A DNA stretch of 64,000 nucleotides, taken from assembly GCF_039822205.1 (NCBI RefSeq), contig NZ_JBAGBW010000007.1, forward strand, positions 1 through 64,000. Reading direction: 5' to 3'. Source of the stretch: Thermodesulfobium sp. 4217-1. Its GTDB lineage: Bacteria > Thermodesulfobiota > Thermodesulfobiia > Thermodesulfobiales > Thermodesulfobiaceae. A model generated the notes under the pieces. That model made no database searches, was not told the DNA's origin, and saw only the letters and a list, made by a program, of their open reading frames with translations. Of this stretch, positions 48,839 through 52,374 are shown in pieces. The stretch's first letter is position 1. Every line of letters begins with the position of its first letter. The position numbers and the translations under genes are program-made.

Positions 48839-49272
48839 AAATATTACCCCTAATTAAATAAAAATTTTAGCTTTCTACAAGCAGCAAAATTTAAAGAGTA
48901 TAGTTTGGAATTATAACATATATAATTATCAATAAGATCAATAAATAAAAACATTCTATAACATTTAACTATTAGAATCAAATTTAACTTCTGCCACCAA
49001 AAATCAACCAAAAAATATAAGAAATATGATCGCAAGCTCTGCACCTTTAAAAAAGGAGTAGTTAGAGCAAAACCATCGCAAAAGTAGTTTTATTTTTATC
49101 ATGAGATGTATATGATTATTTTTAGCAGGCGCTATCAGTGACAGTTTCAGATTTAAGAGTTTATAATTATCTTATCGAGATTTTTGAATATTTAAAATAC
49201 CAAGCTTTTTAGAATTAGAGATTTCAAATGACTAAGTTTAACGCTTGATAAATTATGACTGGAGGAAATGCG
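48839..49272. other. AT-rich divergent intergenic region with a hairpin
   Basis: This 434-base gap separates the divergent PAS/EAL gene and the alpha/beta hydrolase gene. Both promoters must lie here. The open frames in it are short, AT-rich and lack ribosome sites. The one notable structure is the hairpin at 49036-49068. I could not match the region to a known riboswitch or RNA family. Confidence 0.5.
49036..49068 (+). other. Two-tier inverted repeat in an intergenic region
   Basis: GCTCT at 49036-49040 pairs with AGAGC at 49064-49068. Inside it, CCTTT and AAAGG can form a second stem around an A-rich loop, giving a 33-base hairpin with an internal asymmetry. It lies about 200 bases before the alpha/beta hydrolase start and is not followed by a T-run, so it is not a standard terminator. 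It could be an RNA structure or protein site. Confidence 0.3.
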
Positions 49273-50091
49273 ATGGCAAACTTTAAGACGAACGACGGGG
49301 TAGAAATTTATTATGATATACAGGGCGAAGGAAAGCCTCTCTTCATGCTGCCTGGCTGGACATGTACCACGCGTTTCTGGAAGAAAAATATACCCGAGCT
49401 TTCCAAAAAGTTTAAAGTAATCAGTATGGATATGCGTGGCCACGGCGAATCAGAAAAGGTTATGCACAGTCATCGCATTTCTCGCTATGCAATGGACGTA
49501 AAAAACTTATTTGATCATTTAGATATCAATAATATTACTGTACTTGGATGGTCAATGGGCGCCTCTGTTTTGTGGAGCTATATAGAACTGTTTGGAAATT
49601 ACAGACTTAAAGGCCTTATATGTGTAGATCAATCGCCTGCACAATATACAGGTCCAGATTGGGTTTGGGGGCAGAAGGGCTGTTATGATGTAGAAATGTT
49701 TATTCATCTTTGTTGCAATATAAAATTTGACCCACGTGGTTGTGCAGAAGGATTGGCATTCGCCTGCCTTAATCATAAGCCATCTGCTGAAGAAGCTAAA
49801 TATATCGCAGATGAAATTTCCAAATGTCCACCTTATGTCCGAATAGAAATTATGCGCGACCATACAAATTTAGATTGGCGCGATTTTATTCCACACATCG
49901 AGCTTCCCACGCTTGTTTGTGTAGCAAGAAATAGTATGGTTTTTCCCTGGCAAGGCAGTGCATGGGTAGGAGAAAATATACCCAATTCACAAATAGAATT
50001 CTTCGAAAATTCAGGACATATGTTGTTCTGGGAAGAGCCTGAAAAATTTAACAAAGTTGTGCGCGATTTTGTAGAAAAAATTAATAAATAG
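49273..50091 (+). CDS. Alpha/beta-fold hydrolase
   Basis: The 272-residue protein starts at the ATG with GGAGG seven bases upstream. It has the alpha/beta hydrolase fold: an oxyanion-region GWTCTTRFW, the nucleophile elbow GWSMGAS (Ser94), and a C-terminal catalytic His in NSGHMLFWEEPEKFN. It may hydrolyse an ester, a peroxide-type or lactone substrate; nothing specific can be read. It stands alone between divergent and convergent neighbours, and its wording is richer in G+C and uses CGC/CGT arginine codons more than the surrounding genes, which is compatible with transfer. Confidence 0.88.
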   Translation: MANFKTNDGVEIYYDIQGEGKPLFMLPGWTCTTRFWKKNIPELSKKFKVISMDMRGHGESEKVMHSHRISRYAMDVKNLFDHLDINNITVLGWSMGASVLWSYIELFGNYRLKGLICVDQSPAQYTGPDWVWGQKGCYDVEMFIHLCCNIKFDPRGCAEGLAFACLNHKPSAEEAKYIADEISKCPPYVRIEIMRDHTNLDWRDFIPHIELPTLVCVARNSMVFPWQGSAWVGENIPNSQIEFFENSGHMLFWEEPEKFNKVVRDFVEKINK

Positions 50092-50178
50092 ACTTCTTTA
50101 CTCACCCATTCTTTCAGAAAAAGATTTTGATTTATTCATATCGTTTAATTCCTAAAATATTTAAATTTAGAAATAACT

Positions 50179-50874
50179 TTAATCATTGTCTCCCTCTAAT
50201 ATTCTGTCAAAATAATCTTTTATCTTTATAAATATCTCTTCTTGTTCGTCAATATTATCAACAATTTGTCTTATATATTTATGCTTATCTTGTTCTACGT
50301 TGCGCAAATTTTTCGATTCTATATAAAGAAGAATGCTTAATTTTCTTTTACCATATTTTGTAACAGAATTTAATCTACTTTTATGAAATTTACAAATAAA
50401 TGACCCTAAAAACTCCCCAATTTCATTAATTTTCTCTTTATTTTTACCTTTAAGCTTGCTGCATACATAGTCTTCTATTTCGTCGCCATCTTGAGATTCG
50501 CTTGGGATTAAACAAAAGTCAAAATTCTTTAAATCTAAATTGTTTTTTTCGTTAATCTTCTTCTTAAAACCTTCTATCTCTGCAGATGCATCTTTATCCA
50601 GTATCAAAAGAAGTGATTTTAGATTATCAAAATAAGGAACATTCGGTAATTGATTAATATAATTCTTTCCATTTAATAAATACAAATCACAAACACACTT
50701 ATTATCAAAGTATACACACTTGTCCCTATCATTATCTACATTTTCTTTAATAACATAATTATTATTTAATTTTTTTATAAGAGACTCAACTAAACAATTA
50801 ATACTTTTATCCTCAACTGCGATAAGGTGTTGAGTGTTTAAATATTTAAGGAATAATTCATTCTGCTTTTTCAT
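50179..50874 (-). CDS. Toprim-like (DUF3226-like) protein paired with an AAA ATPase
   Basis: The 231-residue product has the outline of a Toprim nuclease or primase domain: Glu21 in HLIAVEDKS, then Asp93 and Asp95 in LLLILDKDAS, and a following acidic DGDEIEDYV near residue 129-137 that resembles the 'G-x-L-E-D' block of DUF3226. The basic C-terminal part lacks a clear fold. It starts three bases after the ATPase gene, so the two are coupled. Pairs of an AAA ATPase and a Toprim protein make up several anti-phage systems (OLD-like, PARIS-like), which suggests but does not prove a defence role. Family placement is by motif only. Confidence 0.7.
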   Translation of the reverse strand: MKKQNELFLKYLNTQHLIAVEDKSINCLVESLIKKLNNNYVIKENVDNDRDKCVYFDNKCVCDLYLLNGKNYINQLPNVPYFDNLKSLLLILDKDASAEIEGFKKKINEKNNLDLKNFDFCLIPSESQDGDEIEDYVCSKLKGKNKEKINEIGEFLGSFICKFHKSRLNSVTKYGKRKLSILLYIESKNLRNVEQDKHKYIRQIVDNIDEQEEIFIKIKDYFDRILEGDND

Positions 50875-50877
50875 AAT

Positions 50878-51960
50878 TTATCTAAATTCCATATCTCCTT
50901 CTACCATCTCTTTTAGATCCTGTCCGCTAATAAGAGTAGGATAAATCTTCCCATCGTACTTTTTATTTATTCTTGTTGCACCTATAGAATCTATATCGTT
51001 ATCTTTCATAGCCTTAAAGGCTTCCTGTACAAATTCCAGGCTGTGTGTGGCTATAAAATATTGAATATTAAGATCCTTAGATAGTCTTAAGATGTATCCA
51101 AAAATTTTCTTTTGAATAGACCAGTGAAGGCCGTTCTCTATTTCATCTATAAGAATAATTCCATCCATTCGTGTTATAGAAACACCTATAATATAAAATA
51201 TCTTTAAGAAACCTTCTCCCATTTGGTTAATAGGCACAGAAACATTTTTTCTTTTAACAATGACAGTTTGCAAACCAGTTGAAATAAGATCAATATCTTC
51301 AATATCGTCTTCAACTATTTTCAGTATATCGATTAATTCTTTTTTCTTATTGGACATAACAACTTCACTATAAATTGCATTTATGTGGGTCGAGTTAAAC
51401 ATAAACATTGAAGGTATATAATAAAAACTTAATTTTTTATTAATAGTCGTTTGTGATGGTAGTACATCAAATGATAGAAAAGGATTTCTATTCATCATAT
51501 TGCTGTTATCTATTATGCTATGCTGCTGCATCTGGGGTTCTTTACTTTTTTTATCTATATATTCCCATTTAAAAACTACTTCTCGAGAACTATAATCTTT
51601 ATTAAAATCTCTAAATATTAACAAAGACAATTTATCTTTACCCTCTAAGTCGAATGATAATATCATATCCATATTCAAATTTTTAAATATTGTATTCCAC
51701 AAATCGTCAAATTTTAGCAATGTGGTTCCTAAAAGAGGATTTAAATAAGATTGATAATGCAACACCATTTGAAAATTAGCGCTTAGAACTCTGACATCAG
51801 GTTCTGAGTAACACAGAAGTAAATATATAGCTTCTAACAAAGACGTCTTGCCTACACCGTTTTCTCCATACACAAAGTTAATCCTTTTATTTAGAGATTT
51901 AACTTCCAAATCATCAAAAGTTTTAAAATTTTTAATCCTAATATTTGAAATCCTACTCAT
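50878..51960 (-). CDS. AAA_21-type (RecF/OLD-like) ATPase, putative defence component
   Basis: The 360-residue ATPase belongs to the ABC/SMC-like AAA_21 group. It begins ISNIRIKNFKTFDDLEV, has Walker A GENGVGKTS at 32-40, a QMGEG signature-like stretch at 246-250, Walker B IILIDEIENGLHW with the catalytic Glu273, and the switch His306 in IATHS. There is no fused nuclease domain; that function may be supplied by the Toprim-like protein encoded next. The pair is bounded by an alpha/beta hydrolase and an orphan HicB-like gene, an accessory-looking stretch. Confidence 0.82.
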   Translation of the reverse strand: MSRISNIRIKNFKTFDDLEVKSLNKRINFVYGENGVGKTSLLEAIYLLLCYSEPDVRVLSANFQMVLHYQSYLNPLLGTTLLKFDDLWNTIFKNLNMDMILSFDLEGKDKLSLLIFRDFNKDYSSREVVFKWEYIDKKSKEPQMQQHSIIDNSNMMNRNPFLSFDVLPSQTTINKKLSFYYIPSMFMFNSTHINAIYSEVVMSNKKKELIDILKIVEDDIEDIDLISTGLQTVIVKRKNVSVPINQMGEGFLKIFYIIGVSITRMDGIILIDEIENGLHWSIQKKIFGYILRLSKDLNIQYFIATHSLEFVQEAFKAMKDNDIDSIGATRINKKYDGKIYPTLISGQDLKEMVEGDMEFR

Positions 51961-52197
51961 AATTTCCTCACACTAAAAAGATTGAAACTACAAAAATCTA
52001 TCATAAAAAAGCCCCCTAAATAACAATCATAAATCTAATTGATAAAAACTAATTATCTAGATTATACTTATTAATAGCTCACTGTCAAATAATATATTTT
52101 AGGTAAAATTAGTGCCAAAAAATACATTGGTATATCAAGCTAAAAGTTTTAGATTAAGACAAAAATTATATATTATTAAATATTTGAGGAGGAGATT

Positions 52198-52374
52198 ATG
52201 GAAAAGATCATAAACATAAAAATAGAGAGATTACCAGAAGGGCTTTATCTTGCAACGTCTGAAGATATTCAGGGCCTTATTGCGCAAGGAAGAACAATAG
52301 AAGAAACTACTGAAATAGCCAGAGACGTAGCCAAAAACTTAATTGAGCTTCAAAATAGATCACTCTCTTCCTAA
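52198..52374 (+). CDS. Small HicB-like antitoxin-fold protein, no toxin gene seen
   Basis: A 58-codon gene with a strong GAGGAGGAG site starts at the ATG at 52198 and ends with TAA at 52372-52374. Its sequence, INIKIERLPEGLYLATSEDI followed by QGLIAQGRTIEETTEIARDVAKNLIEL, fits the HicB partial-RNase-H fold ('EGLYLAT-SxD-QGLIAQG-T-EE'). HicB proteins neutralise HicA RNases and repress their own operon, but no hicA-like gene precedes or follows, and the C-terminal DNA-binding domain is absent. It may be an orphan antitoxin or another small HicB-fold protein. Its 3' end overlaps the convergent priA by four bases. Confidence 0.78.
   Translation: MEKIINIKIERLPEGLYLATSEDIQGLIAQGRTIEETTEIARDVAKNLIELQNRSLSS

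What the first reader, a model, noticed from the sequence alone, without database searches (positions are those of the whole stretch)
50179..51960. Coupled AAA ATPase and Toprim-like genes: a possible OLD/PARIS-type defence pair
Seen: an AAA_21-type ATPase (Walker A at residues 32-40, Walker B with Glu273, His306 switch) is followed three bases later by a 231-aa protein with a Toprim-like Glu21, Asp93 and Asp95. Known: OLD nucleases join these two activities in one chain, and PARIS-type anti-phage systems use an AAA ATPase and a separate Toprim protein. Inferred: this could be a split variant with a DUF3226-like effector that is not one of the commonly listed forms. The surroundings (isolated hydrolase, orphan HicB-like gene) look accessory.
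Basis: partly seen in the sequence, partly recalled or inferred. Interest (0 to 1): 0.75.

Follow-up and report, generated by a model that had tools for sequence, protein, structure and literature searches.

The report
Divergent AbiL/PDC-M38-type ATPase–Toprim defence pair
Two neighbouring bacterial genes make an ATP-driven sensor and a small, very divergent nuclease-like partner, most likely a two-gene anti-phage module of a kind already listed in defence databases but, as far as I found, never tested, so this is a divergent example and not a new principle.

Summary
The pair is real. Gene A (50878-51960, -) is an intact AAA_15/AAA_21 ABC-type ATPase. Its best PADLOC models are AbiLi (1e-52) and PDC-M38A (2e-47), far ahead of the PARIS protein AriA (1e-24). 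Gene B (50179-50874, -) has no credible match in Pfam, PADLOC, NCBIfam or PDB and no detectable homologue in 386 genomes. Nevertheless, all 82 partner proteins scanned from next to A homologues are DUF3226, PADLOC's PDC-M38B. A profile of 102 partners, made without B, ranks B first among the window's ORFs (17.3 bits; best of 2,000 shuffles 9.1). B keeps the family's conserved acidic residues E21, D93, D95 and E134. A control AlphaFold2 model of a typical DUF3226 matches OLD-nuclease Toprim domains best; B's model puts the same residues at the same places in the fold. The pair lies in a 3.1-kb stretch missing from a sister species. The same genome carries two further such pairs. Best reading: a divergent AbiL/PDC-M38-type "split OLD" defence module in which the ATPase restrains a Toprim nuclease until a phage is sensed. 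It is not a PARIS member. Mechanism and anti-phage activity are inferred, not shown.

The parts
50878..51960 (-). Gene A: 360-aa AAA_15/AAA_21 (ABC-type, OLD-like) ATPase, AbiLi / PDC-M38A family
50179..50874 (-). Gene B: 231-aa divergent DUF3226/Toprim-like partner, putative Mg-dependent nuclease effector
   Evidence: no direct family hit; profile of 102 partners without B ranks it first, 17.3 bits against 9.1 for the best of 2,000 shuffles; AF2 model pLDDT 84.7, pTM 0.80
51841..51867 (-). Walker A of gene A (GENGVGKTS, residues 32-40)
51142..51147 (-). Walker B Asp272-Glu273 of gene A
   Evidence: invariant in A1 and A5
51043..51045 (-). switch His306 of gene A
   Evidence: invariant
50881..50889 (-). 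C-terminal E-F-R tail of gene A; family-wide [E/D]-x-R carboxy terminus
   Evidence: 79 of 102 partnered ATPases end exactly in Arg, 98 of 102 have Arg in the last four residues, all six Arg codons used
50812..50814 (-). Toprim-type Glu21 of gene B (after strand 1)
   Evidence: 100% conserved in 102 partners; strand E16-20
50590..50598 (-). Toprim-type Asp93-x-Asp95 of gene B (end of strand 87-93)
   Evidence: D93 100%, D95 84% in partners
50473..50487 (-). G130-x-x-x-E134 family motif of gene B
   Evidence: G 98%, E 97% conserved in partners
52061..52088 (-). promoter-like site TTGACA-16-TATAAT about 100 bp upstream of gene A
   Evidence: 12/12 consensus, the only one in the stretch; consensus scan only
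48993..52120 (.). accessory segment (hydrolase + A-B pair) absent from sister species G003 and replaced by a chemoreceptor gene in G001
   Evidence: flanks align across the junction
49255..50091 (+). alpha/beta hydrolase co-inserted with the pair; convergent neighbour, no evidence that it belongs to the module

Best explanation
A-B is a divergent variant of the AbiL/PDC-M38 type of two-gene 'split OLD' anti-phage module. A dimerises or oligomerises as an ABC/OLD-type ATPase and holds B inactive. On infection A senses a phage cue, its nucleotide state changes, and B is released or activated. B then uses a Toprim-type acidic site (E21, D93, D95, probably E134) with Mg2+ to cut nucleic acid, most plausibly RNA such as tRNA, and stops phage growth by shutting the cell down. 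Shown here: intact ATPase motifs, coupled genes, family-level partner identity, conserved Toprim acids at the right topological places in a predicted model, accessory insertion. Inferred by analogy with PARIS and AbiL: sequestration, trigger sensing, nuclease activity, target and abortive infection.
For: A: AbiLi 1.2e-52 and PDC-M38A 2.4e-47, against AriA 1e-24. Next to A homologues in many phyla and on plasmids sits a coupled gene (gaps mostly -16 to +5), and 82 of the 82 partners scanned are DUF3226 and nearly all PDC-M38B. B is found by the partner profile built without it, ranks first in the window, and 0 of 2,000 shuffles reach its score. B keeps E21, D93, D95, P124, G130, E134 and the conserved Lys. 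B model pLDDT 84.7, pTM 0.80, acids after strands 1 and 3. The control DUF3226 model's top three PDB hits are OLD Toprim domains. The partner profile matches PDB 2p62 (4.8e-5), with AriB weakly below it, and 2p62 is also B's best full-length fold match (TM 0.45). Accessory insertion; low GC; two more pairs in the same genome. Literature: AriA hexamer sequesters AriB, which once released cuts tRNA (PMC12409363); F. nucleatum AbiLii is toxic in E. coli (PMC3985639); AAA + OLD_TOPRIM pairs including AbiL (PMC10440598).
Against: B fails every curated family threshold and shares only 11-22% identity with partners. Foldseek gave no significant Toprim hit for B itself. No other recognised defence gene was seen directly beside the pair. 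No anti-phage test of DUF3226 pairs was found in the papers held. Some OLD ATPases are not defensive (Cran1, PMC12796447).
Confidence: 0.7

Rival explanations
1. Toxin-antitoxin / addiction module: A is an antitoxin-like ATPase that neutralises the toxic nuclease B, and the pair persists by stabilising its DNA, with phage defence secondary or absent.
For: PMC10440598 places AAA + OLD_TOPRIM pairs in the core toxin-antitoxin network with experimental neutralisation; relatives of A occur on small plasmids; coupled genes.
Against: For AbiL of F. nucleatum, AbiLi gave no antitoxicity against AbiLii (PMC3985639). The pair here is chromosomal and its family is in PADLOC's phage-defence candidates.
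Confidence: 0.15
2. B is not a Toprim protein: an unrelated effector has replaced DUF3226 downstream of a conserved AbiLi-like ATPase.
For: B hits no family and Foldseek gives mostly P-loop/Rossmann-like matches with low TM; in the model a beta hairpin stands where the second helix of the control lies.
Against: Profile match with B excluded, retention of the family-conserved residues and their topological positions, and the same length class as DUF3226.
Confidence: 0.1
3. True PARIS (AriA-AriB) system.
For: Same two-gene ATPase + Toprim logic; A has a 1e-24 match to AriA models.
Against: AbiLi and PDC-M38A fit far better; B has no AriB or DUF4435 match and its partner family is DUF3226.
Confidence: 0.03
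4. Chromosome-maintenance or cell-cycle function like archaeal Cran1, not defence.
For: An OLD ATPase-nuclease with a cell-cycle role and no antiviral effect is known (PMC12796447).
Against: Patchy occurrence, absence from the same site in sister species, several divergent copies per genome and presence on plasmids and viral contigs point to an accessory role.
Confidence: 0.05

Closest known systems
PDC-M38 (PADLOC candidate module: AAA ATPase PDC-M38A + DUF3226 PDC-M38B)
   Same: ATPase passes the PDC-M38A models (2.4e-47); same gene order, spacing, effector length and conserved residues
   Different: B falls below the PDC-M38B and DUF3226 models; 11-22% identity to family members; beta hairpin in place of a helix in the model
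AbiL (AbiLi/AbiLii, Lactococcus abortive infection)
   Same: AbiLi is A's best PADLOC model (1.2e-52); two-gene ATPase + OLD/RloB-type Toprim operon
   Different: B has no AbiLii match; of 83 aligned partners only 5 hit the AbiLii model, weakly
PARIS (AriA/AriB)
   Same: Separate ATPase and Toprim genes; weaker AriA match; 21 of 83 partners show weak AriB matches
   Different: A nearer to AbiLi/M38A; DUF3226 instead of DUF4435; tRNA target and Ocr sensing unknown here
OLD nucleases (Class 1-2, Gabija GajA)
   Same: ABC-type ATPase plus Toprim; control DUF3226 model matches OLD C-terminal domains best
   Different: Two polypeptides here, no helicase gene

Membership tests
PDC-M38 (PADLOC) | ATPase matching PDC-M38A models | tested here: met
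   2.4e-47 over residues 4-360
PDC-M38 (PADLOC) | adjacent protein matching PDC-M38B / DUF3226 | tested here: not met
   B: no PDC-M38B or DUF3226 match even at E 10; only a profile made here from partners finds it
PDC-M38 (PADLOC) | coupled gene order ATPase then effector | tested here: met
   3-bp gap in the window; same order in 102 related loci
AbiL | AbiLi-type ATPase | tested here: met
   PDLC02336 1.2e-52, best of all PADLOC models
AbiL | AbiLii effector | tested here: not met
   no AbiLii match for B
AbiL | abortive infection phenotype | not testable with these tools
   needs phage assays
PARIS | AriA best match for ATPase | tested here: not met
   AriA 86 bits against AbiLi 178 bits
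PARIS | AriB / DUF4435 effector | tested here: not met
   no match
OLD-type Toprim fold (effector) | Glu after strand 1 and DxD after strand 3 in a Toprim-like core | tested here: inconclusive
   residues and order fit but Foldseek gives no significant Toprim match for B; control DUF3226 does hit OLD domains
OLD-type Toprim fold (effector) | metal-dependent nuclease activity | not testable with these tools
   needs biochemistry

The most novel reading that the evidence does not exclude
B is a distinct, so far unmodelled class of split-OLD effector, Toprim-derived but rebuilt (hairpin in place of a core helix, long helical tail), with its own target, so that AbiLi-type ATPases control a wider range of effectors than the databases list. 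Its ATPase carries the family's C-terminal [E/D]-x-R tail, which could be the element that holds or releases the effector.
Probability: 0.2. Interest if true: 0.55.

Novelty: new variant of a known kind. Interest (0 to 1): 0.36.

Why it matters
Split ATPase-Toprim systems are known to be defensive in PARIS and AbiL, but I found no experimental work on the widespread DUF3226 branch (PDC-M38) in the papers held. This case ties that branch structurally to OLD nucleases, shows an effector that has drifted below all current models while keeping its acidic site (so surveys undercount such systems), and points to a conserved C-terminal tail on the ATPase as a testable coupling element.

Tried and rejected
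Direct homologue searches with B found nothing: genome-contig scan, plasmids and phages tblastn, 41 and then 386 genomes, PDB sequences. Foldseek with B's model against PDB and BFVD gave no significant hit; the top ranks are GTPases with TM of about 0.2 and were not used. Weak chance family hits for B (Csm6 0.025, CobN 0.0034, FIP 0.034) were rejected because they cover unrelated stretches far below cut-off. PARIS membership rejected on scores. The idea that the C-terminal E-x-R tail is only a ribosome-binding site or a gene-overlap artefact was rejected because all six Arg codons occur and non-overlapping pairs show it most (51 of 55). A flanking-repeat signature of insertion was sought and not evident. 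Papers on DUF3226 or PDC-M38: none in the library.

Full report
What is there. Gene A (51960-50878, minus strand, 360 aa) and gene B (50874-50179, minus strand, 231 aa) are intact and 3 bases apart. A strong promoter-like site (TTGACA-16-TATAAT, 12/12) lies about 100 bp upstream of A on the same strand; this is a consensus match only.

Identity of A. Pfam gives AAA_15 and AAA_21 (5e-21). PADLOC ranks AbiLi (1.2e-52) and PDC-M38A (2.4e-47) first over the full length, with AriA at 1e-24 and GajA, PtuA and others lower. All 48 ATPases aligned in A5 match the same two groups. The tree of 103 family ATPases puts window A among them as a lone branch (best identity 29%), not grouped with either of the other two copies in the same genome; deep support in this tree is weak.

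Identity of B. B has no credible direct hit anywhere. The evidence comes from its partner. Homologues of A from GTDB genomes, plasmids and viral contigs are followed by a coupled gene of about 200-235 aa. Of 82 such partners scanned, all 82 are DUF3226 and nearly all are PDC-M38B; about a dozen of the most divergent partners were not scanned. Some show weak OLD-like TOPRIM (17) or DUF4435 (7) matches. The relatives were fetched with an alignment whose members were mostly already known to have such partners, so the count describes this subfamily and not all AAA_21 proteins; more distant AAA homologues (under about 40 bits) sit beside unrelated genes, some with HNH-like sequence.

Blind test of B. 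A profile of 102 partners that excludes B scores B at 17.3 bits, first among 136 window ORFs (E 2e-5; the next is 4.8 bits). None of 2,000 shuffled B sequences exceeds 9.1 bits. In an alignment with these partners B keeps the residues that are 84-100% conserved: E21, D93, D95, P124, G130, E134 and a Lys placed at 176 or 178 depending on the alignment; it departs at one, the Gly after E21 (89%), where B has Asp. hhalign of B against eight partners gives E 0.001 but only 22% probability, so pairwise evidence stays weak.

Structure. AlphaFold2 with 83 sequences models B at pLDDT 84.7 and pTM 0.80: strand 16-20, helix 23-36, strand 40-44, a hairpin 52-66, strand 87-93, helix 94-109, strand 118-123, then helices. 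E21 follows strand 1, D93/D95 end the third core strand, and G130/E134 follow the fourth, as in the control. The alignment given to AlphaFold2 holds the family, so the model is not independent of the assumption that B belongs to it. The control, a canonical DUF3226 from Desulfonema magnum (L045), folds at pLDDT 93.6, and its top three PDB matches are the C-terminal regions of OLD nucleases (6nk8, 6njv, 6njw; probability 0.96-1.00, TM 0.43-0.53, E 0.004-0.02). B's own search gave no significant match; its best full-length match is PH0156 (2p62, TM 0.45, probability 0.93, E 0.03), the same entry found by the family sequence profile (4.8e-5). Toprim identity of B is therefore probable by family, not proven by fold search.

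Context. In the sister species G003 the flanking GGDEF gene and priA are almost adjacent (about 105 bp between aligned flanks); in G001 a chemoreceptor gene occupies the slot; in the window about 3.1 kb with the hydrolase and the A-B pair is inserted. B has the lowest GC (25.6%) of the 53 long ORFs in the window and A is fifth lowest (29%), against 35% overall. The genome carries two more pairs, C31 (L010) and C38 (L011), whose effectors do pass DUF3226. The C31 pair also fills a slot that is nearly empty in G003. About 12 of 193 sampled genomes have a full-length family ATPase (over 130 bits), and this one has three.

How it probably works. PARIS is the nearest worked-out system: an AriA hexamer holds AriB, phage proteins trigger release, and dimeric AriB cuts tRNA (PMC12409363). 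AbiLii from F. nucleatum is toxic in E. coli, yet AbiLi did not neutralise it (PMC3985639). AAA + OLD_TOPRIM pairs form part of the toxin-antitoxin network (PMC10440598). PADLOC's PDC systems are unpublished candidates (PMC11811056). By analogy A is sensor and restraint, B the nuclease. Every step after 'A has intact ATPase motifs and B has a conserved acidic site' is inferred.

A family feature not in the finding. The ATPases of this family end in [E/D]-x-R: 79 of 102 stop exactly after Arg and 98 of 102 have Arg in the last four residues. All six Arg codons are used, and pairs whose genes do not overlap beyond one base show it most strongly (51 of 55), so it looks selected in the protein. 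Window A ends in EFR. It may contact the effector or the neighbouring ATPase subunit (inference).

Verdict. It is a divergent variant of the AbiL/PDC-M38 kind, not PARIS and not a new principle. B fails the formal PDC-M38B/DUF3226 criterion, so I do not file the pair as a strict member.

Noticed in passing
L010 4580-6300 and L011 4385-6149 (same genome, contigs C31 and C38): Two further AbiL/PDC-M38-type pairs with recognisable DUF3226 effectors in the same genome, from different branches of the ATPase tree.
   Followed up: partly
L010 2966-4380 (-): An AAA_21-type gene split into 97- and 341-aa frames beside the C31 pair, probably a decayed ATPase gene; it and the pair fill a slot that is nearly empty in sister species G003.
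   Followed up: partly
50881-50889 and 102 related loci: Conserved C-terminal [E/D]-x-R tail of the ATPase family, protein-level by codon variety.
   Followed up: partly
52198-52374 (+): 58-aa HicB-like (DUF1902/UPF0150, sub-threshold) ORF without a visible toxin partner; sister species G001 keeps matching DNA upstream and at its 3' end but no intact ORF.
   Followed up: partly
49255-50091 (+): Alpha/beta hydrolase co-inserted with the pair; the other species of the genus hold only distant relatives of it (25-29% identity).
   Followed up: partly
L012 (G027 contig C36): A PDC-M38-type pair embedded between a helicase-like gene (1172 aa) and large methylase-like and ATPase-like genes, looking like part of a larger defence island.
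   Followed up: no
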